The position numbers were made by a program, and so were the translations under genes. 64,000 nt of DNA from Rhodococcus rhodnii NBRC 100604. Lineage in GTDB: Bacteria; Actinomycetota; Actinomycetes; Mycobacteriales; Mycobacteriaceae. Positions 15,636 to 64,000 of the stretch are shown piece by piece. Position 1 is the first letter of the stretch, and each line of letters starts with the position of its first letter. A model generated the notes under the pieces. It did not search any database. It saw only the letters and a program-made list of their open reading frames with translations, and was not told the origin of the DNA. Location: positions 24,738-88,737 of the forward strand of contig NZ_BCXD01000020.1 in NCBI RefSeq assembly GCF_001894925.1, read 5' to 3'.

Positions 15636-15744
15636 CTCGAGTGGTTGCGCGAGCACCACCGGAAGCGAGTCCTTCCTCCGACCAGGGTGCGCACCGCAGC
15701 CGTTCGCCGACGCCCGCGACAGTGGGCGGGAGAAGAAGGAGCTC

Positions 15745-35929: not shown

Positions 35930-35941
35930 ACACGTCTCCGA

Positions 35942-36993: not shown

Positions 36994-37529
36994 GACGCGC
37001 TCCGCTGATCGTGCTCACGTGAGTCGGGGTCGACCGGGCCGATGCGGCCGAGGTAGTAGTCGGCGACGGTGCCCGTCATGGCGTGCGGCGGCGCCTCCAT
37101 GCCGTGATACAGCGGTGCGAGCAGGTCTTCCTTCGTGAAGATGAGGTCGCGCCGGTTGTCCTCGGCGATCTCGAACTCCTGCGTCATGGTGAGCGCGCGG
37201 GTCGGGCACGCCTCGACGCACAGGCCGCAGCCGATGCAGCGCAGGTAGTTGATCTGATAGTCGGCGCCGTAGCGTTCGCCGGGCGAGTAGCGGGCCTCGT
37301 CGGTGTTGTCGGCTCCCTGCACGAAGATCGCGTCGGCCGGGCACGCCCACGCGCACAGCTCGCAGCCGATGCACTTCTCGAGGCCGTCGTCGTAGCGGTT
37401 GAGGCGGTGTTTCCCGTGAAACCGTGCGGGCAGCCGCGGGTTCTCCTCGGGATACATCCGGGTGTGTTTGCGCTCGAACATCCCTCGCAGCGTCACCCAG
37501 AATCCGGCGACCGACTTGATGCTAGGCAC
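36990..37529 (-). CDS. nuoI: NADH-quinone oxidoreductase subunit I
   Basis: A 179-residue peripheral-arm subunit that carries two 4Fe-4S clusters (N6a and N6b) next to the quinone site. The ligand motifs are [12 protein letters not shown] and [15 protein letters not shown] 37529 ([14 protein letters not shown]) lies inside the 3' end of nuoH (8-base overlap) and gives the normal family length. A near-parS sequence lies inside the gene at 37409-37422. Confidence 0.95.
37409..37422. promoter_or_regulatory. Near-match to parS inside nuoI
   Basis: GTTTCCCGTGAAAC differs from the palindromic parS core GTTTCACGTGAAAC at one base. It may be a weak ParB site or chance within a coding region. Confidence 0.35.
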
Positions 37530-43284: not shown

Positions 43285-44570
43285 CGGTCGACACCTCCCA
43301 TCACGGGGTCGATGCTCGCGACCGACGCGATGACGTCGGCGACGGAGCCGCCCTCGCACATCGCCGCGACGGCCTGGAGGTTGGTGAAGGACGGATCGCG
43401 AAAGTGCACGCGGTACGGCCTGGTTCCGCCGTCCGAGACCATGTGGACGCCGAGTTCGCCGCGCGGCGACTCGACTGCGGTGTAGACCTGGCCGGGCGGC
43501 ACCCGGAACCCCTCGGTGACGAGCTTGAAGTGATGGATCAGCGACTCCATCGACGTGCCCATGATCTTTGCGATGTGCTCGGGCGAGTTGCCGAGGCCGT
43601 CCATGCCGACCTTCAGCTTCGAGGGCCAGCCGATCTTCGGGTCGTCGACCATCACGGGGCCGGTGCGCAGCCTGTCCAGGCACTGTTCGACGATCTTCAG
43701 CGACTCGTGCATCTCCTGGACGCGCACGAGATAGCGCCCGTAGCAGTCGGATCCGTCGTCGACGGCGACGTCGAACTCGTAGTTCTCGTACCCGCAGTAC
43801 GGCTGCGAGCGGCGCAGATCGTGCGGCAGCCCCGTGGCGCGGAGGATGGGGCCGGTGACGCCGAGCGCGATGCAGCCGGTGAGATCGAGGTAGCCGATCC
43901 CGCGAGTCCGTGCCCGCCACACCGGATTCTCGGTGAGCAGCAGTTCCAGGTCGCGCAGCCGGCCCGGCAGGACGCGCAGCACCTCACGGACCTTCGCGAC
44001 GCCGTCGTCCGGCAGGTCCGCCGCGACTCCGCCGGGGCGGATGTAGGCGTGGTTCATCCGCAGGCCGGTGATCGTCTCGAAGACGTCGAGGATCAGTTCG
44101 CGATCGCCGAATCCGAACAGCATCGGCGTCGTGGCGCCCAGTTCCATGCCGCCCGTCGCGAGCGCGACGAGGTGCGACGAGATGCGGTTGAGTTCCATGA
44201 GCATGACGCGGACGATCTGCGCGCGCTCGGGCACCTCGTCGGAGATGCCGAGGAGCTGCTCGACGCCCAGGCAGTAGGCGACCTCGTTGAACATCGGTGC
44301 GAGATAGTCCATCCGCGTCACGAAGGTCACGCCCTGCGTCCACGTGCGGTATTCGAGGTTCTTCTCGATCCCGGTGTGCAGGTAGCCGATTCCGCAGCGT
44401 GCGTCGGTGACGGTCTCGCCCTCGATCTCGAGGATCAGCCGCAGCACGCCGTGGGTCGACGGATGCTGCGGGCCCATGTTGACGACGAGCCGCTCGTCAC
44501 CGTTGTCGCGGATCTGCTCGGCGATCTCGTCCCAGTTCTGGCCGCCGGCGGTGTAGATGGTGTCGGTCAT
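43281..44570 (-). CDS. nuoD: NADH-quinone oxidoreductase subunit D
   Basis: A 429-residue 49-kDa-type subunit lining the quinone cavity. It has [15 protein letters not shown] (the quinone-facing His), [30 protein letters not shown] and [18 protein letters not shown] 44570 overlaps the nuoC stop by one base (TGATG). Confidence 0.96.
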
Positions 44571-45259
44571 CAGTTGTACGACCTCCGCTCGTCGGGCGGG
44601 GGTATGCGAGCGCCCTTGTACTCCACGGGGATTCCGCCCAGCGGGTAGTCCTTGCGCTGCGGGTGGCCCTCCCAGTCGTCGGGCATCTCGATCCGCGTGA
44701 GCGACGGGTGGCCGTCGAAGACGATGCCGAAGAAGTCGTACGTCTCGCGTTCGTGCCAGTCGTTCGTGGGATAGATCGTCGTCACCGACGGGATGTGCGG
44801 GTCGTCGTCGGGGGCCGCGACGTCGAGCAGCAGGCGCCGGTTGTGGGTGATCGAGAGCAGCGGGTAGACGGCGTGCAGTTCGCGGCCGGCGTCGTCCGGG
44901 TAGTGGACGCCGCTGACGCCGAGGCACATCTCGAATCGCAGGCGCTCGACGTCGCGTAGCACCCGTGCGAGCAGGGGCAGGTGCGCGCGCTGCACGTGGA
45001 GGGTCAGGCCGCCGCGATCGACGACGACGTCCTCGATCACCTCGCTCGGCGCGAGCCCGCTGTCGGCGAGTACGGCGGTGAGGGTGTCGATCGCGTCGTC
45101 GAACCACTCGCCGTACGGGCGCGGGGTGGACGTGGGAAGCGTCGAGGAGCGCCGCAGGCCGCCGTAGCCGGAGGTGTCGCCGGAGCCCGTCGCGCCGAAC
45201 ATGCCACGACGCACCGCGACCGGGTCGGTGGTGCGGGCCGGGGGCCGCTCGCCCGTCAC
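44570..45259 (-). CDS. nuoC: NADH-quinone oxidoreductase subunit C
   Basis: A 229-residue 30-kDa-type subunit of the peripheral arm. The signature [20 protein letters not shown] and [22 protein letters not shown] are complete. The N-terminal 40 residues are variable. GTG 45259 overlaps the nuoB stop as GTGA. NuoC and NuoD are separate genes here, not fused as in E. coli. Confidence 0.95.
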
Positions 45260-45840
45260 GGCCGGGTTCCCGAGAACGGCTGGATCTGCAGCAGCGGCGC
45301 CTGGTCGATCGCCGCGGCCTCGACCTTCCGGATGGCGAGGTCGCGGTCGACGCCGAGCGGCATGCGCTGGATCTGGTCGTGCAACGTGAGGATCGCATTG
45401 AGCAGCATCTCCGGGCGCGGCGGGCAGCCGGGGAGATAGATGTCGACGGGGACGACGTGATCGACGCCCTGCACGATCGCGTAGTTGTTGAACATCCCGC
45501 CCGTCGAGGCGCAGACACCCATCGCCACAACCCATTTCGGTTCGACCATCTGGTCGTAGATCTGCCGCAGGACGGGCGCCATCTTCTGGCTGACGCGGCC
45601 CGCGACGATCATGAGATCGGCTTGGCGGGGGGAGGCGCGGAAGGCCTCCATGCCGAACCGGGCGATGTCGTAGCGGGGCCCGCTCGTCGCCATCATCTCG
45701 ATCGCGCAGCACGCGAGGCCGAAGGTCGCCGGCCACAGCGATCCCTTGCGCAGGTATCCGGCGAGTCCTTCGACGGTGCTGAGCAGGAAGCCGCTGGGGA
45801 CCTTCTCCTCGATCCCGCCGCCGGGAGTGGTCAGTCCCAT
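45256..45840 (-). CDS. nuoB: NADH-quinone oxidoreductase subunit B
   Basis: A 194-residue subunit bearing the terminal 4Fe-4S cluster N2, which reduces quinone. Cysteines are in [22 protein letters not shown] and [12 protein letters not shown] 45840 lies within the last codons of nuoA (10-base overlap). Confidence 0.96.
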
Positions 45841-46181
45841 GCGAGCCCTCCTCGTCGCCATTCGTACGCGTAGGCCACCGAGACGTTGAAGACGAACAGC
45901 GCCATCGCGACGAGCCCGAACGTGCCCAGTGCGTCGAAGTGCACGGCCCACGGGTAGAGGAAGACGATCTCGATGTCGAAGACGATGAACAGCATCGCGG
46001 TGAGGTAGTACTTCACCGGAAACCGCAGGCCACGGGGTGCGGGGGTGGGGTCGATGCCGCACTCGTACGCTTCGAGCTTCGCGCGGTTGAAGCGGCTCGG
46101 GCCCACGACGGAGGCGATCGCGACCGACACGATGCCGAAGACGACAGCGATCGCACCCAGCACCAGAATCGGTGTGTACAT
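45831..46181 (-). CDS. nuoA: NADH-quinone oxidoreductase subunit A
   Basis: A 116-residue subunit with three transmembrane helices and the conserved loop [23 protein letters not shown] (shown in part: ECGIDP), whose cysteine switches accessibility during turnover. First gene of the operon. GGGAGG lies upstream of ATG 46181. A longer frame to 46277 is rejected because the added residues are unrelated to the family. Confidence 0.96.
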
Positions 46182-46520
46182 CGCCGCCACCTCCCGATAC
46201 GTGAGCTGTGACTCAGTGATACGGATATGTGATGCACCACACTTATCACGAGTCACAGCGGGCGGCATTCTCAGCATGCGTTGTGTCGAGAATCACAATT
46301 CATCTATCGCGATGTGCGATAAATAGCCGGTGGCTCCGGTGCGCGTGAGTCGGCGGCGCATCGGTGGCCGTCCATACGTCGGACCTGCTGGTGATCGGGT
46401 TTCTACCTGCTGTGGACGAGCGATCACGCCCGCTTCGGCGGGTACTGCCTGTGAGGTCTACTCATCGGTAACCGGCGCGCTCCGGCACCCCGGAGCAGCG
46501 GCGGCGTGCCTGGTCGAGCG
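46182..46520 (-). promoter_or_regulatory. nuo operon control region
   Basis: This 339-base gene-free stretch upstream of nuoA is rich in symmetry. TGTGATGCACCACA at 46228-46241 is a near palindrome. CTGTGACTC at 46206-46214 and GAGTCACAG at 46250-46258 form perfect 9-bp arms bracketing it. TATCGC/GCGATA (46305-46310 and 46316-46321) is another inverted pair. These are likely regulator sites for respiration control. No clear -35/-10 pair stands out. The left part (46330-46520) shows nothing distinctive. Confidence 0.5.
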
Positions 46521-48033: not shown

Positions 48034-49101
48034 TCAGAGGGTTCCGTCGGCGGTGGAGAGGGCGACGGCGAGCGCGACTCGTCCTGCCGTGTCGCGGAAC
48101 GACCTGCCGGTGAGCGCTTCTGCCTTGTCGAGACGGTTGCGGACGGTGTTCGGGTGCACGTTCAGCTGCGCTGCCGCGCGCGTGAGCGAGCCGTCGACGG
48201 CGTCGAACGCGCGCAGCGTCGCGACGACGTCGGTGCCGTGGCGGCGGTCGTAGCGCGCGAGCGGCAGATAGATGTGGTGGTGGAACGGCGCAGACTGGTC
48301 GGCGCGCAACCGCCCGATCAGCGATTCGAGCGTCGCCGTGTCGCGGCCCGACGACGTCGCACCGCGCGTCTCCGCGAGCCGAAACGCCGCGAGGGCCTCG
48401 TCGATCGCGCTCGCGACGTAGCCGATGGATACCGGCCCGCCCGTCCCGTGCGGTTCGGGCAGGGCGCGTCGCTGCGCGGCGCCCAGTGGTGCCGGAACGA
48501 TCGAGACGAGCGTGCCGTCGAGCGCACCCACCGGGAACTCGCCGCCCAGCGCCTCCTCGGGCCGCGTACCCGGCCCGGTGCAGACGACCTCGACGTCCTG
48601 GCCCGGCCGGATCACGCGATGTAGCTCGGGCGCGAGGACGGACGTCGACGCCCAGCCCTTGCGCACGGCGTCGAGCAGCCGTCCGACGGCGTGCCGGCGT
48701 TCCGTCGTGAGCTGGCGCGCCATGCGCAGGCCGTCGTAGAGCTCGGCGATCCGTGCGAATGCGAGCGTCGGCGGGATCTCGAGGACGGGGATCCCCGCCG
48801 CGTCGGCGGCGTCGAGCAGGGCGGGCGGGATGTGCTCCCACGCGATCTCGATGCCGAAGCCGATCGCGGCGGCGCGCGCGTCGATGCAGTCGCTCGTGAA
48901 CGCCCGCACCGAGGCGTCGTCGGTGAGCACGAGACCCGTCGTGAAGACGAGTGCGCCGTGGGGGACGTAGCCGCCCGGCCGGGGCAGTTCGGTGGCGTAC
49001 GTCGCGAGGATCTCGTGACCCAGGCCCGCGTCGCCGCCGACGAGACGCATGTCGGGCAGCGCCGCGTCGCGCAGCAGGTCACGGACCGTCACGATTGACA
49101 C
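48034..49101 (-). CDS. PucR-family transcriptional regulator
   Basis: A 355-residue regulator. An N-terminal PucR-type sensory domain (TVRDLLRDAALPDMRLVGG, ELPRPGGYVPHGALVFTTG) is followed by a long middle region and a C-terminal helix-turn-helix (GSLTRAAAQLNVHPNTVRNRLDKAEAL). GTG 49101 is preferred over ATG 49134 because a perfect palindrome overlaps the extra codons. Divergent from a permease-amidohydrolase pair, it probably controls them. PucR relatives govern purine and related nitrogen catabolism. Confidence 0.88.
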   Translation of the reverse strand: MSIVTVRDLLRDAALPDMRLVGGDAGLGHEILATYATELPRPGGYVPHGALVFTTGLVLTDDASVRAFTSDCIDARAAAIGFGIEIAWEHIPPALLDAADAAGIPVLEIPPTLAFARIAELYDGLRMARQLTTERRHAVGRLLDAVRKGWASTSVLAPELHRVIRPGQDVEVVCTGPGTRPEEALGGEFPVGALDGTLVSIVPAPLGAAQRRALPEPHGTGGPVSIGYVASAIDEALAAFRLAETRGATSSGRDTATLESLIGRLRADQSAPFHHHIYLPLARYDRRHGTDVVATLRAFDAVDGSLTRAAAQLNVHPNTVRNRLDKAEALTGRSFRDTAGRVALAVALSTADGTL

Positions 49102-49119
49102 GCTCGTAACGTACGAGCG
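49101..49119. promoter_or_regulatory. Palindromic operator at the pucR-permease divergence
   Basis: CGCTCGTA, ACG, TACGAGCG: perfect 8-bp arms. It abuts the regulator's GTG start and lies in the 193-base spacer to the permease, a natural place for autoregulation. Confidence 0.65.
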
Positions 49120-49294
49120 CCATGTTGTCGGCATGTGAACCCAGGTTGTGGGCGGATCACAATTGCCGGGCAGGCCATTGTGGACTGCTCCATTCGGCTT
49201 TCGTCGCGGCCTCCGCCGGGCCTAGCGTCACCGACGTCGCCACCGGCAGCCGTCGTCGCCCGCCGGGACTCCCTCTCGCACCACGGAGCGCCCC

Positions 49295-52542: not shown

Positions 52543-54777
52543 TCAGGACTTCAGCAACTCCGATTGCTTGCCACTCCAGGTCACGACGAGTTCGTCCCTG
52601 GCGCGACTGGCGGCGACGTAGAGCAGTGAGCGTTCGCGGAGCAGCGCCTCGGCCTTCTCCTCCTCGGCGACGGCGCGCAGTGTGGCGGCCGACGGGACGT
52701 GGGAGTCGTCGATGCCGGCGAGGATCACCCGCGAGAACTCCATGCCCTTCGAGCGGTGCATCGTGAGGACGAGGACGTGGCCTCCCGATGCCGGCTCGTT
52801 GTCCAGCGCTCGCGCATCGATTCCCCGATCACCGAGCGTGCGGACGAACCTGCCGCGGTCGTCGACGCCTCGCGTCAACATGGCGATGGTCGATGGCTCG
52901 ATGCCTTCGTCGAGCCAGGTGCGCACCTGATCGGCGACGACGGTGCGTTCCTCCTCGGTTGAGGCACATTCCCGCAGCGTCGGGTGCGGGCCGCTACGGG
53001 CAGAGCGGTACTCGGTGGTGTCCTCGACACCCTGTTCCAGATCCTTGTACTCGGCGCCCGACAGGACGCTGACCGCGAAGTGCAGGTTCTCGGCAGTCGT
53101 GCGGTAGTTCAGCGTGAGGCGTCGTGAACGCCCGACGATCTTGATGCCGAACCGAGCCAGAACGACGGGCTGACCGTAGATGCGCTGGTGCGAGTCCTCG
53201 GCGATGAAGAGGTCGTTCGGGCCTTCGGCGACGAGGCTGCGCAACAGCGTCCAGTGCGCGGCGTGCAGGTCCTGGGCTTCGTCGACGATGACGTGATCAG
53301 CGATGTGGGAGCCGTCTGCCTCGGCCTTCAGTCGCAGCGATTCGGCTGCCAGAGCCACGGCTTCGGGGAAGGTGAGCACACCCTCGAGCCGGTTGTGTCG
53401 GCGGAACGACTCGATGAGCTTCCACACGGCGATCCGCTGTGGCCTGCTCAACCGGACGCCGCGGCCCGGCCGTGCGACCTTGACGTACTGCTCGAGCGAC
53501 GCGATGCGGTTGCCCAGGACGACACCGACGTACTCGGGCTCGAGGAAGGCGGGCGTCGCCAGCTTGGCATCGAGATCGGTGGTCGTGGTCGCGACGGTGT
53601 CGCGCCACGCCTTGTCGGCGTTGGCTCGTGTGGAGGTGACTTCGAAGCTTCCGCCGAAGAGGGATTCGGTTGCGGCGGCGGTGTTCTGCGCCGCGACGAG
53701 CACCGCGTTGCCGAGTGCATCGATGCCGCGAACGTAGATTCCGGGTTCGCCCGGCTTCTTCGCGATCCGCAGGTTCGGGTCCAGCACCCGCAGGTCGTGC
53801 TCGAGTCCGGCGGCGAGCGTTCGATTGAACGTCGTCAGGACGATCCGCGCGTCGGGGTTCTGCTGGGCGAGGTGTCGCGCGCGGTGGATCGCGACGACGG
53901 TCTTGCCGGTGCCGGCTCCACCGGAGAGCCGGAACGGCCCGCTCTGGGTCTTCTCCGCGTACTTGCGCTGCTCGGGGTGCAGGAAGGTCCGCCATGCCGT
54001 GAAGTCGCCGCCTTCGATCACGCGGCGGAGTTCCTCGTTGTCCTCGATGTAGGCGAACTGCATCTTGGAGGCGGGTCGTTCCAGGGCGGCAAGGATGCGA
54101 TCGTCCTCGTCGAGGGTCTCGTCGTCGAGTGCTTCGTCGGTGAATCCGTGCTTGTCGCGGATGTCGTCGATGCTGGTGCCGACGGCGAGCTCGAGCAGTG
54201 CGCTTCCCTGCCAGCCCGCGACCTCCGCGGCGATCGCAGTGATGTCGTGATCGTCGCCTGCGGTCATGGCGCGTTCGGCCAGGGCTTCGTCGAGGCCGAG
54301 GCGTTCGGTGAGATCGGCCATCGTGTACCCGGCGTCGACGAGGAAGGGAACGGCCTCGTCGGCGGGCTCGATGTTGCCGATCCGACCGGCGGAGTCGTGG
54401 ACGACGGTGCGCTTGGCGCGATCGTTCTTTCCGTCGAGCTCACCGATGATGCCTTCGAGGGCGCCGTTGATCGGGTTGACGCGCAGCGTGGATCGCTCCG
54501 CGAGGGTATTCGCTTCGTCGTGCGGCCACGTTCCCATGTAGATGTAGGTCGTGTCGCCGTGTTTGCCCTCGACGCGGAACAGGATCGCCCGGTAGTGGAG
54601 GTCGACTCGTCCGGTGCGGACGCGTCGGTCGACGGCGCCCTTGATCGGTTCGATGTGCAGTCCGGGTGAGGTGTCGTCGAGGCGTACCTTCTCGAAGAAG
54701 TCGTAGACCTTGTTCTTGATCGACCCGTCGAGCTTGGGCATCGCCTTCATGTTGGTCGCGAGAACCAGATTCGCCAT
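52543..54777 (-). CDS. RelE-fold/UvrD-like SF1 helicase
   Basis: A 744-residue protein. Residues 1-105 resemble a ParE/RelE toxin fold (PGLHIEPIKGAVDRRVRTG, LHYRAILFRVEG, TYIYMGTWPHDEA). An SF1 helicase follows: Walker A LSGGAGTGKTVVAIHRA near 285, DEAQD near 500, the Q-RIYG and LNYRTTAEN motifs, HRSKGMEFSRVIL and LLYVAASRARDE. Related RelE/UvrD fusions occur in defence loci. The start overlaps the stop of the upstream helicase by one base (TAATG), so they are co-translated. Last gene of the minus-strand module. Confidence 0.85.
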   Translation of the reverse strand: MANLVLATNMKAMPKLDGSIKNKVYDFFEKVRLDDTSPGLHIEPIKGAVDRRVRTGRVDLHYRAILFRVEGKHGDTTYIYMGTWPHDEANTLAERSTLRVNPINGALEGIIGELDGKNDRAKRTVVHDSAGRIGNIEPADEAVPFLVDAGYTMADLTERLGLDEALAERAMTAGDDHDITAIAAEVAGWQGSALLELAVGTSIDDIRDKHGFTDEALDDETLDEDDRILAALERPASKMQFAYIEDNEELRRVIEGGDFTAWRTFLHPEQRKYAEKTQSGPFRLSGGAGTGKTVVAIHRARHLAQQNPDARIVLTTFNRTLAAGLEHDLRVLDPNLRIAKKPGEPGIYVRGIDALGNAVLVAAQNTAAATESLFGGSFEVTSTRANADKAWRDTVATTTTDLDAKLATPAFLEPEYVGVVLGNRIASLEQYVKVARPGRGVRLSRPQRIAVWKLIESFRRHNRLEGVLTFPEAVALAAESLRLKAEADGSHIADHVIVDEAQDLHAAHWTLLRSLVAEGPNDLFIAEDSHQRIYGQPVVLARFGIKIVGRSRRLTLNYRTTAENLHFAVSVLSGAEYKDLEQGVEDTTEYRSARSGPHPTLRECASTEEERTVVADQVRTWLDEGIEPSTIAMLTRGVDDRGRFVRTLGDRGIDARALDNEPASGGHVLVLTMHRSKGMEFSRVILAGIDDSHVPSAATLRAVAEEEKAEALLRERSLLYVAASRARDELVVTWSGKQSELLKS

Positions 54778-57700
54778 TACGCCACCCCGTTCGTGTTCAG
54801 TGCGACCGAGATCGCCTCGGCGTCGGGTGCACAGATCGTCCAGCCCGCCGCCGACATCGTATTCGCGACGTCGCTGTCCGGATCCGCAACGCCGACCCGG
54901 AGCTCGGGCCACGCGAAGTCGAGAACGTCGCCGCTTTCGGTTTCGTATCCCAGTTCGGGGATGGGCGTATCGGCGTGGGCGAGCGCCACCACCAGCTCTC
55001 GTTCGGCTCTGCTGCCGACTGCCTGATCCCAGATGGTCTTCCACTCGGGCGGCAGTGCCGCCTCGTCGGTGGTCGTCGTCGACGGCGCGGAGGTGTCGTC
55101 CTGCAGCAGAGTCACGGTGGTGACGCGGTGCGTGCCGCTGATGCCGAGCCAGTTCGACAGCCGGTTCCATTCCTTCCACCCGTAACCGTCGTGGATCTCG
55201 AGCTTCTCGTCTCGGTCGTCCACGGCGAGGACGGCGCGAATCGATCTGTCGGAGGCCGACATTGCGGAGGACACCGTGACGGTGCCGTCGCTGAGTGACC
55301 AGCACATGTCGGTGCCGCCGACGGCCGGGGGAGTGTCGCCGAGGAGCGTGGCGAGTGCACGTTCGGCCACGGACTCCTGGGGCGCCTTCACACGGTTGCC
55401 CGATCGGACGAACATGAGCGGCAGGTGGCGGCTGACCGTTTCCCATGCCTCGAGGTCGGGGTCGGCGATGAAGGCCAGGAGCTGCGACACGGGGTCTGCC
55501 GTCAGCAGCTTCAGCAGTGCGGGTTTGAGCTTGCCCATCGCCATGGTCTGTTTCGCGGCGCTGGCGGAGTACCACGCGGGCTCGGCCGATTCGCCCTTCT
55601 CGAATCGCCGCAGATCCTCGTGTCCGAACGACCAGACGAGGGTCCCGGCCTCGCGCAGCGCGGCGCGTTTGCGGGCGTCGTCGGCGATCCGGTTGTAGCC
55701 GGGCATGGCGTGGAAGCGACGGCCGTCCGCGAAGATCGCGATGCGGGGGATCGACGTGTCGGCCGTGCTCAGTTCGAAGTCGGGCCGCGATCCCCCCATG
55801 AGCACCTGTGGGGTCAGTACCCAGGTGCGAATCGTCTTGCCGGGCATCACGATCGTCGCTGAAGGCCCGTACGTGCCCGGTTTCTCTTTGATGCTGGCGC
55901 CCCTCGCGCGGAGGCGATCGACGAACGCGACGTAGAACTCCTTCTCGAGCGGGGATTCCTCGCTGCCGACCGGCGGTACGGATACGCCGTCGGTGACGGC
56001 GTCCAGCCACGCGGTGTCGTCGGGCTCGGCGTCGTCGACCACGCCGAGGATCTGGTCGAGCACGCGCAGTGCCGCCTTGCGGGAGACGCGATCGAGCTCG
56101 TGGGACGGCGCGAACGGCAGCAGGCACTTGTGGCACGCGAGCCGGTCGTGTTCGGCGCAGTCGCAGTCGTGCACCACGGCACGCGCGGCGGCGAGTACCG
56201 CCCACACCTTCGCGGGGTCGGCGAACTCGGCGAGATACCCGGTGCCGCCCGGCACCGTGTCGTGGATGAGCAGCGCCCGCTGGTCGGGGGCGTAGAGGGC
56301 GTCGGTGATGGTGGCGACGTCCAGGTGCTCGGGCGAGCCGCCGATCACCTGTCGCAGGCCGAGCAGGATCGCGGCACTCAGGCTCGGGTGAGCGAAGAGG
56401 TCGTACTCGAGGGAGCGGGGCAGATGCAGCAGCACGCCCTGGGTGCGCAAGGTCCGGGCGAGTGCGATCTCGCGGACGTGCTCGACCGGCGAGTTGCGGT
56501 GCCGACACCAACTGCGGTGCTCGTAGCGAGTGTTGCGGCCGGCGGACTTGTCGAGCTGCCCGCACGACGAGCACACGCGAAACAGGCCGGTGGTGGTGTC
56601 GTGTCCGGCGATCGTCCGCGTGCCACCTTGAGACGTACGCCGGCCCATGTTGAGCCACCGGACGTCGAGACGGCGGAGATACTGTGCGCCGAACTCGAAT
56701 TCCTCGACGGACCACGATCGGTCGACGTTGACGGGGTCGATGTCGGCGGCGGTGACGATGGTGAACGCCTCCTTGTGGCGTTCGTCGCGAGCGTCGTTGA
56801 TGGAGGCCTCGTCCCGCCGCACCTCGGCGGACACCCGCGCCATCTCGACGACCTGCAGCTGCTGGCTCACGTCGGCGATCGCGCCCGTCCCGCACCGAGG
56901 GCACGCGCTGATGGTCGGCGGAATCTCGCCGGCGAGGGTGATTCCGGCCCAACCACATTGGGGGCAGAGTCGCCACGTGTGGATGTTCGACTCGCCGGCG
57001 CCGAGGTCGACGGCGTCGATGCGCGCGGCGAGGCCCTGGGCGTAGAAGGTGGCGCCGGGCGCGAGTTCGGTGAGCGCGACGCGGGAGCCTCGCTGGTAGC
57101 TGGTGGCCTCGCCCATGTACTGGTTGGTGTCGGGGTCGATCCAGGTGACGCCGACGTCGAGGGTGACGGAGTCGTCGAGGAGCGTGTAGTTGGGGAGGAC
57201 GCCGTATCGCTCGAGGACGCTGATCCAATAGTCGTCGGTCAGATCGTGGATCTGTCCGCTGAGCAGGCGCAGCGAGCCCTTGGCGGTGCGGAGGTCGCGG
57301 CGGTCGTCGTCCGTGGCGGCCGGGGCGTCGGCTCGTCGCTCGAACTCGGGCATCTCCGCTTCGACGGCGGCGCGGCGGGTTGTCAGCTCGGCGAGATCCC
57401 GATTCCACCGATGCACGGCCTCCTGCAGCTCGGTGGCGAGTCCGCTCGGCGTCCCCTCGGCAGTCGATACGGCCCAGCGGCGAAGGGAGTCGCACGCATC
57501 GTCGCTCAGCACGTCGCCGAACTGCGAAAGGAAGCCGTCGACCAGCGCGTCGGAGTCCGTGTTCACGGCAGTGAGCAGCTCGGACATCCAGCTGCCCGGG
57601 TCGAAACTGCCGAGTACTGCGCGCGCACCGCGGGGTGCGATGGTGCTCGGTTCGCGGGCGAGGCGATCGATCACGTGCGCCACGTACTGGCGTTGCAGGA

Positions 57701-60700
57701 TCTCCTCGGCGGTGAGGAAGGTCGCGGGCGGGCGGACGTCGCCCTGGATCACCGACTTCGGGTCGTACAGCTTGGGCAGATGCTCGCCGCGGCCGCGGAC
57801 GAAAGCCAGGACCAGCGAGTTGCCGGTGAGGCGCCCGGCTCGGCCGACGAGCTGCAGATACGACGACACGGTGCGCGGCAGCGAGCCGAGCATGACGGTG
57901 GAGAGGTCACCGATGTCGATGCCCATCTCCAGAGTCGGTGTCGCGACGAGGACGTTCGGGGCCTGGGGGTCGGCGCCGCCACGCTTGAACGCGGTCTCGT
58001 AGCCGAGCCTCGTGGCGGTCGGCAGCAGTGACGTGTGCTCGCGGGCGACGACCCGCTTCATCTCCGCGGTGTCGTAGAGGCGACGGTAGAAGTTCTGCGC
58101 CTTCGGGGCGCGGGCGAGTGTTCCGGGGCAGCGGACCAGCAGACATGGAGCGCCGTCGAGCTGATCGATGGCCGTAGCCGTGCCGGGCGTGGGTGTCTGG
58201 CACACGCTGCACACGAGCAGATGACGCCCGTCGGCGAGGTCGTCCTCCGACGGCGCGGAGACGGTGACGGCCGAGGGCGGAAGCGAATACGCGGTGAGTC
58301 CAGCCTCGGTGAGGTCGGCGGTGAGCACGCGCTGCTCGGCCAGCACCCCGAACAGCGACTTCGCGAGGAAGCCGCCGTCGACGGGTGAGACGTTCAGGCA
58401 CTGGGAGGCCCAGCGCGCGTACCACGACGACGGCGCGGTGATCGCGTCGAAACCTTCCGGAGCGGTACGAGAGCCGACGGCAGGGAAGGCCGGCGCGGGC
58501 CGGCCCTTCGGGAATGCCGGCATGCCTTCGCCTTTGGGGCGCGCACCCCACACCCCCCGGCGGTTGGCGTCCTTCTCGATGTACTTGCGTAGCCACGGAT
58601 GCCGGATCGCACCGCGGGTCCGGATGCGCTCGACGGTGCCACGGACCCAGCGGGTGATGGCTTCGGCATCCGGCGGCGTGGTGGTGAGCTGGTGCTCGGT
58701 GACGTTGAGGGCGGCTCGGCCGAAGCGGACGGCGCGTTCAGGGTCGCCGAGATCGACCTCGGCGACGGCGCTGCCTGTGAGTTCGAGGGTGCGGCCGAGC
58801 CGCGACTGCAGGCCGAACTCGAGATCGATGTCGAACTCGAGTCGACGCTGGACCTTCGCCGTCGCGCGCTTGCGTGCTGCGGTCGTCGCGTCGGGACGCC
58901 AGAACGCCGTGAACTCGTCGTGCTCGACGATGTCGGGCCCGAGCAGGTGGTAGCGGCGAGCGGGATCGTTGCCGGCGCGCGCGATCACGGCCTCGCACAG
59001 CTCGGACAGCGGCAGCGGGGTGGCGCCGATCGCGCTGCGCAGCGTGGAGCGCAGACTCAGGGTGTGCGAGCGGGCCTGTACGAACCCGGCGCGATGCGCG
59101 GCGTCCTGCACGCTGTCGGTGAACATCAACGCCTTCTTCTCGTCGGCGTCGAGGCGGGCGTCGCCGAAGAGATTCGAGAGCGTCACCGAGAGTTGGGTGG
59201 CGACGGCGCTGCCGAGGAAGCGAATGCCGTCTGCGACACCGCACGCGGGGCACATGTCGTTCTTGGAGTCCTCCTCCACGTCTTCGCCGGTGAGCACGAG
59301 GACGGGGAGCACCTTGCCCTCGAGCACCTCGGTGCTGTCCGGGTCGGGCGGAGTGTCGACGATCTCGCGGTCGTCGATGCGGAACCACCGTAGACCGTCG
59401 ACCTGTGTGCCGGGCTGCGCGGCGGTGATCTGGGCCTCGGCGGGGGCAGACAGCAGCGCGCGGAACCGTGAGGCGCCGGCAGCGTGATCGGCGCGAATGG
59501 ACTCGTCGGTCACGTCGAGGGCGTGACCGGTGGGCGCGAGCCGGGCACCCCAACCCGAGCGGCCGCAGTGCCGGCAGTAGAGCGCCGGCAGGTGCATCGT
59601 CTCGGTGTCTTCGTGGACGCCGTCGTCCGACCAGCGGTACGACGTCGTGGGTGACACGGCTCGGTCGATGCGGGAGAGTTCCCGAATCCACAGGTGCACA
59701 TCGACGTTCAGAGCACTGCGACCCACCTCAGCGCGAAGGTGGGAGAGAGCGGCGAACAGATAGTCGAGGAAGCGCTCCTGCGAGACCAGCAGGCGACGAG
59801 TGTTGCGCTCGCCGACCGGGGCGTCGAAGAGTGCGCGCGCGAGGTCCGCGAGTGCGATCGCGTCGACGGCCTGCGCGAGCAGCCTGGCGATCAGTGGGTG
59901 GCCCTTGACCAGCTGCAACTGCTCGATCGGGGTCAGGTTGCGGAGGTCGGCGGGAGTGAGGTGCCGGTCGCCATCGAGCTCGTTCTCGGCGCCGAAGAGC
60001 TCATTGCGCTCGAAGACGTCGGCTCGCTCGAACAGTTCGGCCAGTACGGCGGTGGTGAGGGCTGCGTTGCTGGGCGAGCCGTCGGCGAACTCGTCGAGGC
60101 GTTCGGCAGCATCGGCGATGGCCGGCGCGATGGGGCGGTACAGCCGATCGAGTGCGCGGTCGCGATCGGCGAGCCACTCGGCGGCCGTGAGTCGGGTCTC
60201 GCCGATGACGGCGTCGGGGGGAAAGGTCTCACCGAAGACGGTGTGTGCGAAGTCGAGCATCGCGGTCGGCTCTGCCTTGGAGCCGAGTGTGGCGGACGTG
60301 GCGACGGGTGTGATGCGCCCGAGCGGGCGGGCGCGGTCGTCGTCCGTAACGGGGGAGGTATCGGTCCAGTGCGATTTGACGGTGAGACCGAGGCGCCGGA
60401 GCAGCATGGCGACGTCGGTGCCCTGCGCGCCGTCGTAGGTGTGGAACTCGTCGAGGACGACGTACTGCAGCGAGTCGGCAGACAGCCGCCAGATGTCGGC
60501 GCGGTCGGGGTGGAGCAGCAGGTGGTCGAGCATCTTGTAATTGGTGAGCAGGATGTCCGGCGGGGCCGAGTGCATCAGCGAGCGATCGGTGATGAGACCC
60601 TCGGCGCTGACCTTGGTGCGGCCGGCCGTTGATTGCTCGCCGGTGTAGAGACCGGCGGAGACGCCGGAGAGCTCGGGATGCTCGTCGATGAGCCGCGCGA

Positions 60701-61169
60701 GACGCTCGGCTTGATCGTTGGCGAGGGCGTTCATCGGGTAGAGGACGAGTGCCTTCATCCCGGTGACGCCGGCAGCCTTGGCGCGCAGGACGTGGTCGAC
60801 GATCGGGTAGAGGAATGCCTCGGTCTTGCCGGAGCCGGTGCCCGTGGTGACGAGCGTCGGCCGGGGGCGGGTGTAGAACTTGGTGGACAGTCCCTCGAAT
60901 GCTGCGGCCTGGTGGCCGTAGGGGGTGAATCCCGTTGGCCACCAGTCCAGGTGTAAGCCCCAGTTCCCGCTGGCCGGCGCAAACGGTAGCCGAAGGCGAG
61001 CGTAGGGGCCTTTGAACATGCCGGTGTCGGGGTGACCGACGAAGTCCGACAGGGCGCCCTGGGCATCGGGATCGGTCAGGGCGAAGGTGGTCGCGAGGTA
61101 GTCGGTGAGACCTTCGCGCAGATGGTTAGCTTGCAGGGTAGGTATCAGCGCGCGGATTGATGAGTTCAT
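54777..61169 (-). CDS. Giant DExH helicase with DUF1998 and Vsr/DUF559-like domain (DruE-like)
   Basis: A 2130-residue SF2 helicase. Walker A TGTGSGKTE at 109-117, DEFHTYDGAQ at 240, and the C-terminal helicase lobe ATPTLEMGIDIGDL with QLVGRAGR. CxxC zinc-finger pairs are scattered through it (YCRHCGRSGW, CPACGVADG, CSVCQTPTPG, CPQCGWAG with CPRCGTG, and CSSCGQ). DUF1998 is near 1560-1700 (HDTVPGGTGYL; CDCAEHDRLACHKC). A C-terminal Vsr/DUF559-like nuclease pattern lies near 1740-1880 (RPDFEL, FADGRRFH, DDARKRAALREAGTLVWSF). The layout resembles DruE of Druantia. It overlaps the upstream STAND gene by four bases. Confidence 0.85.
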   Translation of the reverse strand: MNSSIRALIPTLQANHLREGLTDYLATTFALTDPDAQGALSDFVGHPDTGMFKGPYARLRLPFAPASGNWGLHLDWWPTGFTPYGHQAAAFEGLSTKFYTRPRPTLVTTGTGSGKTEAFLYPIVDHVLRAKAAGVTGMKALVLYPMNALANDQAERLARLIDEHPELSGVSAGLYTGEQSTAGRTKVSAEGLITDRSLMHSAPPDILLTNYKMLDHLLLHPDRADIWRLSADSLQYVVLDEFHTYDGAQGTDVAMLLRRLGLTVKSHWTDTSPVTDDDRARPLGRITPVATSATLGSKAEPTAMLDFAHTVFGETFPPDAVIGETRLTAAEWLADRDRALDRLYRPIAPAIADAAERLDEFADGSPSNAALTTAVLAELFERADVFERNELFGAENELDGDRHLTPADLRNLTPIEQLQLVKGHPLIARLLAQAVDAIALADLARALFDAPVGERNTRRLLVSQERFLDYLFAALSHLRAEVGRSALNVDVHLWIRELSRIDRAVSPTTSYRWSDDGVHEDTETMHLPALYCRHCGRSGWGARLAPTGHALDVTDESIRADHAAGASRFRALLSAPAEAQITAAQPGTQVDGLRWFRIDDREIVDTPPDPDSTEVLEGKVLPVLVLTGEDVEEDSKNDMCPACGVADGIRFLGSAVATQLSVTLSNLFGDARLDADEKKALMFTDSVQDAAHRAGFVQARSHTLSLRSTLRSAIGATPLPLSELCEAVIARAGNDPARRYHLLGPDIVEHDEFTAFWRPDATTAARKRATAKVQRRLEFDIDLEFGLQSRLGRTLELTGSAVAEVDLGDPERAVRFGRAALNVTEHQLTTTPPDAEAITRWVRGTVERIRTRGAIRHPWLRKYIEKDANRRGVWGARPKGEGMPAFPKGRPAPAFPAVGSRTAPEGFDAITAPSSWYARWASQCLNVSPVDGGFLAKSLFGVLAEQRVLTADLTEAGLTAYSLPPSAVTVSAPSEDDLADGRHLLVCSVCQTPTPGTATAIDQLDGAPCLLVRCPGTLARAPKAQNFYRRLYDTAEMKRVVAREHTSLLPTATRLGYETAFKRGGADPQAPNVLVATPTLEMGIDIGDLSTVMLGSLPRTVSSYLQLVGRAGRLTGNSLVLAFVRGRGEHLPKLYDPKSVIQGDVRPPATFLTAEEILQRQYVAHVIDRLAREPSTIAPRGARAVLGSFDPGSWMSELLTAVNTDSDALVDGFLSQFGDVLSDDACDSLRRWAVSTAEGTPSGLATELQEAVHRWNRDLAELTTRRAAVEAEMPEFERRADAPAATDDDRRDLRTAKGSLRLLSGQIHDLTDDYWISVLERYGVLPNYTLLDDSVTLDVGVTWIDPDTNQYMGEATSYQRGSRVALTELAPGATFYAQGLAARIDAVDLGAGESNIHTWRLCPQCGWAGITLAGEIPPTISACPRCGTGAIADVSQQLQVVEMARVSAEVRRDEASINDARDERHKEAFTIVTAADIDPVNVDRSWSVEEFEFGAQYLRRLDVRWLNMGRRTSQGGTRTIAGHDTTTGLFRVCSSCGQLDKSAGRNTRYEHRSWCRHRNSPVEHVREIALARTLRTQGVLLHLPRSLEYDLFAHPSLSAAILLGLRQVIGGSPEHLDVATITDALYAPDQRALLIHDTVPGGTGYLAEFADPAKVWAVLAAARAVVHDCDCAEHDRLACHKCLLPFAPSHELDRVSRKAALRVLDQILGVVDDAEPDDTAWLDAVTDGVSVPPVGSEESPLEKEFYVAFVDRLRARGASIKEKPGTYGPSATIVMPGKTIRTWVLTPQVLMGGSRPDFELSTADTSIPRIAIFADGRRFHAMPGYNRIADDARKRAALREAGTLVWSFGHEDLRRFEKGESAEPAWYSASAAKQTMAMGKLKPALLKLLTADPVSQLLAFIADPDLEAWETVSRHLPLMFVRSGNRVKAPQESVAERALATLLGDTPPAVGGTDMCWSLSDGTVTVSSAMSASDRSIRAVLAVDDRDEKLEIHDGYGWKEWNRLSNWLGISGTHRVTTVTLLQDDTSAPSTTTTDEAALPPEWKTIWDQAVGSRAERELVVALAHADTPIPELGYETESGDVLDFAWPELRVGVADPDSDVANTMSAAGWTICAPDAEAISVALNTNGVA

Positions 61170-64000
61170 GATGACCGAAGCTCGCCCCAGAAGCTGCGAA
61201 TTTTCTCCTCAGAGGATTGGCGCGCGCAGAGTGCGGTTGAAGTAAACCGGAACGTCACAACTGATTTAGCCGAGCCTGATGCGGTGATCTGCTTAATCGA
61301 CGCCGCTCCGGCGCTTTCAAGCTTTCGAGTCAGATCAGCCCACAAAGGATCGTTCGGTCGGTACATCCCTCGTCCGGCGCTATCTCCAGGAATTAGGCTC
61401 TTTGTCATCACAATATAAGAATTTTCTCCGCGGGCGGACATCCCGTTGAGTACGTCGTACGCGAACAGCTCAAGAGTGGATGGCTCAGCATCGCGAGCCT
61501 CGTGCAGCTGACGTTGAACTCCTTGAGCGCCGAGTCGGTCCAGTCCTTCTAGGACGCGATGCACTCCCGCTTCAAAAGTGTCTGTCTTTCCGTCTCGACG
61601 AACTACGCTAATCTCTTGAACGGAGACCATTCCCTCGAAAAGCAATTGGGACATCGGGGTGGTGCTGTCGCCGCAAGATTCCAAATGATTGACTGTGCAA
61701 TTTGTCGATGTAATTGATCCCGTGGCTTCCGACGCGAAACTTAGGCGATCGATACGGCAATTCTCCAGGGTTATACCAAGTTGAGCTAGGGGCGTTAGGT
61801 CAAGTGATCCAAAATTTATGTCACGATACCAAGCTGAAGGCGCCGAATGTTTCGACGAAATGAAGGCTGAAATCAACGCCGCAAGATTGAGGGAGCCCAC
61901 GCTGGTGGAATCCTTTTTTGTCACAGATGGTTCCGGCAAGAAAGCCGTGAGGCCTTCCTCGTATCGTTCGACGATCGATGCGACTGTTGCATCCCCAAGT
62001 GGGGATCGCGCGAGCGCCGCGGTCATGGACGTGTAACCGTGAGAGCTGCTGAGGTATTGCTCTCCCAGATAATCTGCCAACATGACCTCGAAAAATATGT
62101 CGTGCTGGAAGCTGAATAGCGGAGAACCGTTGCTGTCTGATGAAGCTGACATTCCACAGAGGACTGTCAGTCGATCGCCGAGGGCCTGGTTTGGGCCATA
62201 AAACCCGTCGAGCTCAAGTGCGGATTCGCAAGCTAGTTTGAAATCGTCGACGTCGAGGCTTGATTCGCTGCTCTCGTAGAGGAGTCCGGCAATCTCCTGA
62301 AATATTGATCGAAGCTGGCGTGACGACACAGGTGATTGGCCGCCTCGACTCTCCAGCTTTTTAGTTTCTCGAGCAAGATATGAATCGATTAATGTCGAGC
62401 GTAGGCCCTGGAATTCGAGGGACGTTCCAGGTGGCGACGTTGCGTCATTGAAGGCCTGTGCGAAGAACGGAACCCCAAGTAGGGACAGGTCAGAGTCGCT
62501 GAGCGACTGTCGATACTTGGACCAGTGAGAGTTTTCCGCGAAAAGCCGCTCGACATCGGAGCGTGACCAGCGCTGCAGTTCTAGGATCATGTGGTGTGCT
62601 GGGAGGCCATCGAGTCGCGCTGCATTCTGCAGACTCGTCTGGTACTGGTTCGCAAAGTAGGACGATCGAGCCGAAAGGAGAATGGTGCCGCTTCCTCCAA
62701 GGTCTTTGAGGACCGGTCGAAGGAGCTGAAATGCATCACCGTAGCCCGTGCCGCCAACTAGCTCATCGAATCCGTCGATGACGAGGACAAGTAGGCCATT
62801 TCTACTGAGTGCGAGAACTGAACTGAAATCAAGGTTCTGCGTTCCCACGACGGCGGCATCAATGATGTCTTCGACCCTCTTTAGGCCCATTCCGCTACAG
62901 CTAATATATAGATAGAGCGGCTTGTTCAAATCGGTGTCGCACAGTGCGGTGGCGCGGTCCTTTGGTGCCTTGAATAGGTTGAAAGTCTTGCCTATGCCAG
63001 CCTCGCCTCGAACGAAATACACTTGTGGCACCCCGGCCGAGTTGTGTGAGGATTCGTCGATAATGTCATAGATGTCGACGGCCTGCCCACCCTTCGAAGG
63101 TTCGAAGCTCGTTCCTAGGAATTCCCGGACTGCAAATTTCGTAGATATCGAGTCGGGTATCTTGAGAGTGGAAAGGTTGGCGAACTGTTCGGCCTCAACC
63201 TGTCGGAGTTTGTCATTGATTTCGGCGAGCCGGTCGAGTGATCTCGGGACGACGACGTTCCAGTTTGCTATTGACTTCAGGAATTCGGTGTAGCTCGCCC
63301 ATCCGTCGGGCGATCTCCATTCGCGTTTATTGTTGTTGTCGATCCGGAATTGGTCGGTTCGGTACTCATGGCCCCCACTGGTCTTGCGTGCCCACGCTAG
63401 ATCGAATGGCGAGTAGGACCCTCGGAAGGAAAATTCCAGGTGAGACTCGCGGAACCCTTTGAGATCCTTGCGGATTGATTCGCGAAAGAGGCTGATGGCC
63501 TGGCGATCCTCTGAAGCAAGGGGAGGTGACGTGTATCTCGAGATCTCGCCTACAATGGCGTCGCTCGGGGAGTCGAACTCGATGGTGGGGCGCTCCGGAT
63601 TTAATGTGTGAAAGGTGCAACGTTGATCGGCGATACTTTGAAATATCGCGAGATCACCGGAACTATCGATGATAAAGGGATGCAGCGATGGTCCGAGTCC
63701 AAGCTGGAGATGGCCATCTGACCAGTGAACGCCTCCACGTTGTTCAACGTAGAGGCAGATCGCCTCTGCATTTTCCTGCTTGGCGTGAATCAGTGCTTCC
63801 TGCAGTTCAGTCCCGGATGGCTCAATCCCGCCGTGGGCGAGGTAATCCCGATACGCTTTGATTGTCCGATTGTTTGTATCTTCATCGAAGCGAAAAGTCA
63901 GTGCATCGCAGAGCGTGGAAACGTCCGGATTGACTCCTTGGGTCCGGCAGTATTCTGAGATCTTCGCTAAGATTTTGAGGGCTCTTCCCGATTCAGAGTA
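61166..64000 (-). CDS. STAND/NACHT-type NTPase, 5' end beyond the window
   Basis: The frame stays open with no stop or usable start from 63032 to the window edge, so at least 945 residues are encoded and the N-terminus is missing. Walker A GEAGIGKTFN is encoded at 62980-63010. LLVLVIDGFDEL is a NACHT-type Walker B and GTILLSARSSYFAN a sensor. Helical repeats follow, then a possible pentapeptide-like stretch (INFGSLDLTPL, ITLENCRIDRLSFAS). Base composition is far lower in G+C than the rest of the window, and two TTA codons (63602-63604, 63968-63970) occur. STAND proteins sense invaders and trigger effectors; its neighbours suggest defence. Confidence 0.8.
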   Translation of the reverse strand, partial: YSESGRALKILAKISEYCRTQGVNPDVSTLCDALTFRFDEDTNNRTIKAYRDYLAHGGIEPSGTELQEALIHAKQENAEAICLYVEQRGGVHWSDGHLQLGLGPSLHPFIIDSSGDLAIFQSIADQRCTFHTLNPERPTIEFDSPSDAIVGEISRYTSPPLASEDRQAISLFRESIRKDLKGFRESHLEFSFRGSYSPFDLAWARKTSGGHEYRTDQFRIDNNNKREWRSPDGWASYTEFLKSIANWNVVVPRSLDRLAEINDKLRQVEAEQFANLSTLKIPDSISTKFAVREFLGTSFEPSKGGQAVDIYDIIDESSHNSAGVPQVYFVRGEAGIGKTFNLFKAPKDRATALCDTDLNKPLYLYISCSGMGLKRVEDIIDAAVVGTQNLDFSSVLALSRNGLLVLVIDGFDELVGGTGYGDAFQLLRPVLKDLGGSGTILLSARSSYFANQYQTSLQNAARLDGLPAHHMILELQRWSRSDVERLFAENSHWSKYRQSLSDSDLSLLGVPFFAQAFNDATSPPGTSLEFQGLRSTLIDSYLARETKKLESRGGQSPVSSRQLRSIFQEIAGLLYESSESSLDVDDFKLACESALELDGFYGPNQALGDRLTVLCGMSASSDSNGSPLFSFQHDIFFEVMLADYLGEQYLSSSHGYTSMTAALARSPLGDATVASIVERYEEGLTAFLPEPSVTKKDSTSVGSLNLAALISAFISSKHSAPSAWYRDINFGSLDLTPLAQLGITLENCRIDRLSFASEATGSITSTNCTVNHLESCGDSTTPMSQLLFEGMVSVQEISVVRRDGKTDTFEAGVHRVLEGLDRLGAQGVQRQLHEARDAEPSTLELFAYDVLNGMSARGENSYIVMTKSLIPGDSAGRGMYRPNDPLWADLTRKLESAGAASIKQITASGSAKSVVTFRFTSTALCARQSSEEKIRSFWGELRSS

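What the first reader, a model, noticed from the sequence alone, without database searches (positions are those of the whole stretch)
52543..64000. Tightly coupled defence-like operon: STAND NTPase, DruE-like helicase/nuclease, RelE-UvrD helicase
Three consecutive minus-strand genes overlap by four bases and one base. Together they pair an NTP-driven sensor (NACHT Walker A GEAGIGKT, Walker B IDGFDEL) with two helicases from families common in anti-phage loci: a 2130-residue DExH/DUF1998 protein and a RelE-fold/UvrD fusion. Druantia and DISARM use DUF1998 helicases, but I know no named system with this trio. The first gene runs past the window, so further components may lie upstream. This is the best candidate here for a new system.
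Basis: partly seen in the sequence, partly recalled or inferred. Interest (0 to 1): 0.85.

Follow-up and report, generated by a model that had tools for sequence, protein, structure and literature searches.

The report
ARMADA operon with nested NLR-like guard
Two of these three genes are the last two genes of ARMADA type II, a recently described bacterial anti-phage system, and the third is an immune-receptor-like gene of foreign base composition that was likely slotted into that operon, where it is predicted to serve as a backup suicide switch.

Summary
The three genes are real, minus-strand, and overlap by 4 and 1 bases. Genes 2 and 3 are not a new system: they are ArmC (YprA/DUF1998 helicase, 54777-61169) and ArmD (RelE-UvrD, 52543-54777) of ARMADA type II (2025 preprint). 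The window ends at a contig end, inside gene 1. Another contig of the same genome begins inside armB and carries armA, each found once, so the operon is most likely armA-armB-[STAND]-armC-armD. Gene 1 is an NLR-like NACHT NTPase with a HEPN-type Rx4H motif and 54% G+C, against 66-69% for the arm genes. It is not part of a widely conserved trio: no match in 36 of 36 genomes with related ArmC/ArmD loci. In Gordonia sp. DT101 a close homologue (84%) is listed on a contig of the same length as its ArmC. In relatives the armB-armC junction is a cargo slot: 17 of 44 measured loci hold inserts (about 0.6-17 kb); 9 of the 17 carry a recognised defence gene (UG17 reverse transcriptase+SLATT, OLD/Gabija-like, GmrSD, DarTG, AbiE). 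armA-armB holds none in 15. Best reading: ARMADA restricts phage DNA; the nested HEPN-NACHT protein is likely a PrrC-like backup guard. New variant of a known kind.

The parts
61166..64000 (-). STAND NTPase gene (HEPN-like domain + NACHT + C-terminal helical/beta repeats); 944 codons, 5' end (about 56 codons) cut by the contig end
63833..63850 (-). Rx4H motif (RDYLAH), predicted HEPN RNase active site
   Evidence: Window residue 51; R and H invariant in 16 of 16 aligned sequences; signature as described in PMC3710099
62984..63007 (-). Walker A GEAGIGKT of the NACHT domain
62759..62779 (-). Walker B IDGFDEL of the NACHT domain
61166..61169 (-). 4-base ATGA overlap of the STAND stop with the armC start (predicted translational coupling)
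54777..61169 (-). armC: YprA-like SF2 helicase with MrfA Zn-binding/DUF1998 region and C-terminal nuclease-like region
   Evidence: Pfam/PADLOC; 28% identity over 2236 columns to ArmC of an E. coli ARMADA II operon; ARMADA side of the tree
60822..60842 (-). ArmC Walker A GTGSGKT (K115; counterpart of E. coli K110)
60441..60452 (-). ArmC DEFH box (D240; counterpart of E. coli D234)
56121..56381 (-). ArmC MrfA Zn-binding domain (PF09369, DUF1998 type)
   Evidence: residues 1597-1683, E 9.6e-12
55710..55787 (-). ArmC C-terminal RPDF...FADGRRFH stretch, candidate Vsr-type PD-(D/E)xK motif
   Evidence: residues 1795-1820; E. coli ArmC has RPDY...FLDGFAFH at the matching place (by eye); nuclease type as stated in PMC12458937
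52543..54777 (-). armD: RelE-like domain fused to a UvrD/GajB-like SF1 helicase
   Evidence: Pfam UvrD; 34% identity over 746 columns to E. coli ArmD; invariant Walker residues in 28 aligned homologues
54448..54777 (-). RelE/YoeB-like N-terminal domain of ArmD (about residues 1-110)
   Evidence: AlphaFold2 model, block pLDDT 88-95 over residues 21-100; Foldseek best hits are YoeB/RelE/YafQ-type toxins, E from 4e-4, TM 0.55-0.70 by target length
53899..53919 (-). ArmD Walker A GAGTGKT (K292; counterpart of E. coli K266)
53269..53283 (-). ArmD Walker B DEAQD (D499; counterpart of E. coli D454)

Best explanation
The finding is the 3' half of an ARMADA type II anti-phage operon (armC 54777-61169, armD 52543-54777) preceded by an NLR-like NACHT gene that likely sits in a variable cargo slot between armB and armC and is predicted to act as a HEPN-RNase backup guard of that system. 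Shown here: gene identities, overlaps, single matches for armA, armB and armC in the genome, contig breaks inside armB and inside the STAND gene, the base-composition step at the STAND-armC border, and varied inserts at the same junction in relatives. Inferred: that the two contigs join through a gap of roughly 3.3 kb (rest of armB plus about 56 STAND codons). Taken from the E. coli system (PMC12458937) and inferred here: ArmA-D together restrict phage without killing the cell, ArmB presumably marking self DNA, ArmC and ArmD processing foreign DNA. Predicted: the STAND protein is held inactive, recognises a phage product or the disabling of ARMADA through its C-terminal repeats, oligomerises through NACHT like an NLR, and brings HEPN domains together to cleave RNA and abort infection, as PrrC does inside a type I restriction operon.
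For: ARMADA: own-genome ArmA (80% to Rhodococcus ARC_M6 ArmA; C16:1503-4355) and 490 aa of ArmB (77% to R. globerulus; C16:7-1473, running off the contig start), each the only match at E 1e-3; 34%, 36% (over 364 columns), 28% and 34% identity of own ArmA, ArmB fragment, ArmC and ArmD to an annotated E. coli A-B-C-D operon; one ArmC in the genome, the two weaker hits being the DruE on C16; tree. Nested STAND: G+C 0.537 against 0.690 (ArmC), 0.664 (ArmD), 0.673 (ArmA), 0.666 (ArmB part); no match in 36 of 36 genomes with related ArmC/ArmD loci; no ArmB, ArmC or ArmD beside 8 of 8 distant homologues. Slot: armB-armC inserts in 17 of 44 loci, armA-armB 0 of 15; 9 of the 17 hold a gene of a known defence family. 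HEPN: Rx4H invariant in 16 of 16, Ex3R in the 10 N-terminal domains aligned, helical N-terminal domain in the model, weak HEPN matches in 2 of 10. Precedent: PrrC (PMC3710099); backup effectors in BREX loci (PMC12839542).
Against: The armB-STAND junction was never seen: it falls in the assembly gap. In Gordonia sp. DT101 only equal contig length (1,366,158) links STAND and ArmC, not adjacency. The HEPN call rests on motifs and a model: a profile of the N-terminal domain found 0 PDB sequences at E up to 10, and the Pfam HEPN hits (0.0058 and 0.18, one sequence each) are no better than some unrelated ones in the same list. The window copy lacks its first ~56 codons in this assembly, so an intact start is unproven. 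No data show RNase activity, abortive infection, or contact between the STAND protein and ARMADA. Insert and direct states are clustered on the ArmC tree (3 changes against 11.7 shuffled), so the 17 inserts are not independent events. One search had no positive control in its genome set.
Confidence: 0.62

Rival explanations
1. Same anatomy (ARMADA type II with a STAND gene in the slot), but the STAND protein is an autonomous single-gene abortive defence (Avs/bNACHT-like) that merely shares the operon's expression and has no functional link to ARMADA. This overlaps the best explanation in all but the link.
For: Homologues at 26-30% identity have no ArmB, ArmC or ArmD beside them in 8 of 8 places (six with 20 kb, two with about 1.5 kb on each side; one of the six shows an 85-residue helicase hit to ArmA at E 6e-5); their neighbours were not typed. 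Close homologues are few: 21 proteins at E 1e-3, one being the window's own, from a capped candidate list. Other slot cargo is also self-contained (UG17+SLATT, DarTG).
Against: Inserts fall at the armB-armC junction rather than armA-armB (17 of 44 against 0 of 15), which mere shared expression would not demand; the STAND stop overlaps the armC start.
Confidence: 0.4
2. STAND-ArmC-ArmD is a new three-gene system in which the STAND NTPase replaces ArmA-ArmB as the sensor.
For: The three genes overlap and are the only operon members on this contig.
Against: armA and armB are present in the same genome at a contig edge, in the fitting orientation and as single matches; no STAND match in 36 genomes with related loci; [quoted passage not shown] coli (PMC12458937).
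Confidence: 0.05
3. A Druantia or DISARM subtype.
For: DruE models match ArmC in pieces (best DruE3, 270 bits, 3 stretches); ARMADA shares a PglX-like methylase and a BrxHII-like helicase with DISARM (PMC12458937).
Against: ArmC lies with ARMADA ArmC proteins, apart from the DruE of the same genome (with a long-branch warning for the E. coli row); the DUF1998-type part is fused to the helicase, unlike DISARM DrmA/DrmB.
Confidence: 0.03

Closest known systems
ARMADA type II (Bell et al. 2025, PMC12458937)
   Same: ArmA, ArmB (part), ArmC, ArmD homologues; ArmC-ArmD order and overlap; RelE-UvrD fusion; a Druantia-type DruE gene beside armA, recalling the ARMADA-Druantia pairing reported for E. 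coli
   Different: A HEPN-NACHT STAND gene directly precedes armC. The paper's Results, read in full, describe no genes inserted in the operon, and 'nacht' occurs 0 times in its main text; supplements not seen
PrrC in the PrrI type Ic R-M operon (passages of PMC3710099)
   Same: NTPase fused to a HEPN-type RNase, encoded inside a methylase-bearing restriction operon
   Different: PrrC uses an ABC ATPase with a C-terminal HEPN; here a NACHT STAND with an N-terminal HEPN-like domain, and the host operon is ARMADA
Auxiliary/backup effectors in BREX and BREX-related loci (PMC12839542, section 35 part 1 and passages)
   Same: OLD, GmrSD and HEPN effectors embedded in a core defence locus
   Different: That survey concerns BREX and DUF499 systems; the word ARMADA does not occur in its main text
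Avs / bNACHT STAND antiphage proteins
   Different: No PADLOC model matches the window protein; HEPN-like N-terminal domain; embedded in an operon

Membership tests
ARMADA type II | YprA-like helicase (ArmC) with fused DUF1998-type Zn-binding region | tested here: met
ARMADA type II | BrxHII/RapA-like helicase ArmA | tested here: met
   C16:1503-4355, 34% to E. coli ArmA; PADLOC DrmD/DrmA/BrxH matches
ARMADA type II | PglX-like methyltransferase ArmB | tested here: inconclusive
   First 490 aa present (77% to R. globerulus ArmB; IIG/DrmMI models); the rest was found in no contig
ARMADA type II | RelE-like domain fused to a GajB-like UvrD helicase (ArmD) | tested here: met
ARMADA type II | Strict gene order armA-armB-armC-armD | tested here: inconclusive
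   A-B and C-D orders met on two contigs; the B-C junction lies in the gap, and a STAND gene precedes armC
ARMADA type II | Active Vsr-type nuclease at the ArmC C-terminus | tested here: inconclusive
   RPDF...FADGRRFH stretch set by eye against E. coli ArmC; no model scored it
ARMADA type II | Anti-phage activity needing all four genes | not testable with these tools
   Shown for E. coli in PMC12458937 only
Druantia | Helicase in the DruE clade | tested here: not met
   tree, (4 DruE rows); only partial DruE model coverage
DISARM | Separate drmA helicase and drmB DUF1998 genes | tested here: not met
   one 2130-aa protein carries both
Gabija | GajA OLD nuclease beside GajB | tested here: not met
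   GajB models match the helicase part of ArmD; no GajA among the families listed for the three proteins (best 25 each)
HEPN-STAND proteins | Rx4-6H with a polar residue after R, and an Ex3[KR] motif | tested here: met
   R107/H112 invariant in 16 of 16, E31/R35 in the 10 of 16 homologues given; the E31-R35 part of the window copy lies beyond the contig end
HEPN-STAND proteins | HEPN fold | tested here: inconclusive
   helical N-terminal domain in the model, but the fold matches concern residues 299-779; profile hits weak or none
Avs/bNACHT | Match to a curated antiphage STAND model | tested here: inconclusive
   0 PADLOC families at E 0.01; which STAND models that library holds was not checked

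The most novel reading that the evidence does not exclude
The armB-armC junction of actinobacterial ARMADA type II is a dedicated dock for interchangeable guard modules: whatever effector is slotted there (HEPN-NACHT STAND, OLD nuclease, UG17 reverse transcriptase with SLATT, GmrSD, DarTG, AbiE) is co-expressed with armC, kept silent by an intact ARMADA complex, and released when a phage disables it, a general PrrC-type two-layer immune operon.
Probability: 0.25. Interest if true: 0.82.

Novelty: new variant of a known kind. Interest (0 to 1): 0.55.

Why it matters
It turns an apparent new system into something testable: a second layer of immunity embedded inside ARMADA, a system named in a 2025 preprint. 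If the slot is real in function as well as in anatomy, the genes found at armB-armC junctions form a ready list of candidate backup effectors, some of them without any family match here (568 aa in Tomitella, 235 aa in Mycobacterium gordonae), and ARMADA joins restriction-modification and BREX as hosts of nested guards. It also gives a simple experiment: inhibit ARMADA and see whether the nested RNase fires.

Tried and rejected
Looked for more sequence upstream: contig C20 ends at the window end; no shared words of 15 to 127 bases between the C20 end and the first 2973 bases of C16. The window genome's genus is called Rhodococcus only because two handles of the same genus have the contig lengths of Rhodococcus records. 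Other STAND homologues at 79% and 59% are on short or unnamed contigs whose surroundings I could not see. Sequence profiles for the HEPN-like and RelE-like domains found nothing in the PDB. Foldseek and VIA-align hits for the STAND model concern residues 299-779; its N-terminal part was not folded alone. The 1050-aa neighbour of DruE on C16 had no PADLOC match at E 1e-10, so DruH is not confirmed there. Considered and rejected: ArmC as DruE, trio as conserved unit, DISARM. My script scored L026's armC-armD interval as short because the GmrSD protein ends in a copy of the ArmC tail, so the armC-armD count of inserts over 2.7 kb is 2 of 61, not 1; two more (L057, L058) have 297 nt. The Fisher values used 1 of 61 and take no account of relatedness, so I do not lean on them.

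Literature: PMC12458937: abstract, passages and the whole Results section; PMC12839542: section 35 part 1 and passages; PMC3710099, PMC13092281 and PMC13192584: passages only; other papers only as search listings.

Full report
What is there. The window's end is also the end of contig C20 of an unnamed 4.46-Mb genome in 70 contigs, in the same genus as two genomes whose contig lengths equal those of Rhodococcus sp. ARC_M6 and R. globerulus.

Genes 2 and 3 are ArmC and ArmD of ARMADA type II. A preprint of September 2025 (PMC12458937; Results read in full) defines this system as ArmA (BrxHII-like helicase), ArmB (PglX-like methylase), ArmC (YprA/DUF1998 helicase) and ArmD (RelE-UvrD), in strict order, all four needed for a direct, non-abortive defence in E. 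coli. An annotated E. coli plasmid operon found with ArmD as query has four genes in that order; its ArmC K110 and D234 and ArmD K266 and D454 carry the residue numbers mutated in the paper. The window's ArmC and ArmD align to it at 28% and 34% over nearly their whole length. In a tree of 50 helicases the window ArmC, the E. coli ArmC and 44 others lie on one side and four DruE proteins, one of them from this genome, on the other (the tool warns of long branches, the E. coli row among them). The RelE-like domain of ArmD is supported by a model (block pLDDT 88-95 over residues 21-100) whose best PDB matches are YoeB, RelE and YafQ-type toxins.

The front half of the operon is on another contig. 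ArmA (80% to the ARC_M6 protein) and the first 490 residues of ArmB (77% to the R. globerulus protein) are at C16:1503-4355 and C16:7-1473, both minus, ArmB running off the contig start. Each was the only match in the genome at E 1e-3, and ArmC occurs once, the two weaker hits being the DruE on C16. Orientation and copy number fit a single operon cut by an assembly gap; the gap itself, about 3.3 kb if armB has the R. globerulus length and nothing else lies there, was not seen. Next to armA, divergent, is a 1637-aa DruE-type protein (603 bits to a DruE1 model, 578 to DruE3) and a 1050-aa protein without a PADLOC match, in line with the ARMADA-Druantia pairing of the preprint.

Gene 1 does not belong to the core. 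Its G+C is 0.537, against 0.690, 0.664, 0.673 and 0.666 for ArmC, ArmD, ArmA and the ArmB part. No match at E 1e-5 exists in 36 of 36 genomes that carry related ArmC and/or ArmD loci (the tool notes that an empty answer without a positive control in the same set proves little, but the same query does find homologues elsewhere). Eight distant homologues (26-30%) have no ArmB, ArmC or ArmD beside them; one of them has an 85-residue helicase hit to ArmA at E 6e-5 nearby (for L135 and L136 only about 1.5 kb on each side was held, and the neighbours were not typed). The best homologue, from Gordonia sp. DT101, is 84% identical, and the same organism's ArmC (80%) is listed on a contig of the same length, 1,366,158 bases. 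This is linkage, not adjacency. The next homologues (79%, 59%, 59%) are on unnamed contigs whose context I could not see.

The junction is a cargo slot in relatives. In 27 armB abuts or overlaps armC (60 nt or less); in 17 an insert of about 585 to 17,349 nt lies between. The other loci had no ArmB in view, no full ArmC, or a contig end, and were not counted. The armA-armB interval was 6-45 nt in 15 of 15 where it could be seen. ArmC and ArmD are within 66 nt in 58 of 61 as the script scored it; one of these, L026, in fact has a 916-aa GmrSD gene between them, so armC-armD inserts over 2.7 kb are 2 of 61 (L026, L078).

What the slot holds. Of the 17 inserts, 9 have a gene of a known defence family: UG17 reverse transcriptase with a SLATT_5 protein (ARC_M6), OLD/GajA-like ATPase (R. 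gordoniae), GmrSD (scanned in L064, with a helicase carrying an MTES_1575 nuclease; L061 and L099 by similarity to it), DarT-DarG (Nocardia vermiculata; N. asiatica by similarity of its DarG), AbiEii (N. aurantia, Skermania). Three were scanned and had no family match: 568 aa in Tomitella and 235 aa in L033 and L079 (PADLOC only for the first two). The other five (L032, L040, L044, L048, L049; large Nocardia inserts) were not scanned. Gene calls in inserts come from a simple longest-frame script. Compact inserts are poorer in G+C than their armB and armC in ARC_M6, Tomitella and R. gordoniae, but not in L079. In N. asiatica a 351-bp perfect direct repeat of the armC 5' end flanks the DarG gene. 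On the ArmC tree the insert label needs 3 changes, against a mean of 11.7 for shuffled labels, so having an insert is inherited within clades while its content differs between close relatives: the window and R. gordoniae, whose ArmC proteins are 80% identical, hold a STAND gene and an OLD gene.

How it likely works. ARMADA is the first line (shown for the E. coli system only). The nested HEPN-NACHT protein is predicted to be a second line that cleaves RNA and stops the cell. The passages of PMC3710099 describe PrrC, a HEPN RNase with an NTPase, encoded inside a type I restriction operon, kept silent by it and released when phage T4 disables restriction; and HEPN domains fused to bacterial STAND NTPases. 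PMC12839542 describes OLD, GmrSD and HEPN effectors inside BREX-type loci as auxiliary or backup effectors. Against a tight functional link speaks that distant STAND homologues live without ARMADA; I give the purely autonomous reading 0.4. It shares all the anatomy with the best explanation, so the two figures are not exclusive.

Known or new. The system is ARMADA type II. The preprint's Results do not mention inserted genes, and 'nacht' occurs nowhere in its main text. Searches for ARMADA papers in the held library gave three that use the name for this system or its family, and none holds YprA, DUF1998, NACHT and defense together. Supplements and subscription journals were not available. I rate the nested STAND and the slot a new variant of a known kind.

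Noticed in passing
L143 (Skermania sp. ID1734) 13090-14421 and 16756-15425; reverse complement of L141 (Prescottella) 971-126: A second copy of the ArmB C-terminal region lies inverted downstream of armB (85% over 1335 bp in Skermania; 31% protein identity in Prescottella), as in invertible specificity modules; ArmB may switch its target domain by inversion. The missing armB 3' part in the window's genome could be an assembly break of that kind (speculation).
   Followed up: partly
L145 (Nocardia asiatica) 15286-15636 and 17768-18118: A 351-bp 100% direct repeat of the armC 5' end flanks a DarG gene in the armB-armC slot, a possible footprint of how cargo enters.
   Followed up: partly
L078 7256-10000 and L026 7250-10000: A GmrSD type IV restriction gene sits between armC and armD, and its C-terminus is a copy of the last ~128 residues of ArmC (46-50% identity; 258-306 bp at 78-86% DNA identity), either a recombination scar or a shared docking tail.
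   Followed up: partly
L127 8706-12305 (Rhodococcus sp. ARC_M6): UG17 reverse transcriptase, SLATT_5 protein and an HTH protein lie between armB and armC.
   Followed up: partly
L036, L040, L042, L043, L048: Two ArmD genes follow one ArmC in Nocardia (55-63% identical to the window ArmD each), in three of the five with a 427-aa gene between; L023 also has a second ArmD about 4 kb downstream.
   Followed up: no
L055, L069, L071-L074, L083, L093, L098: ArmD homologues without an ArmC match in the fetched stretch; several lie beside other conserved large-gene clusters (clusters 3-5).
   Followed up: no
L138 (G000:C16) 4510-12856: A DruE-type helicase gene and a 1050-aa gene run divergently from armA in the window's own genome.
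   Followed up: partly
window 32448-46277: NADH dehydrogenase (nuo) genes, then a PucR-type regulator at 48034-49134: armD ends about 3.4 kb from that ordinary gene.
   Followed up: no
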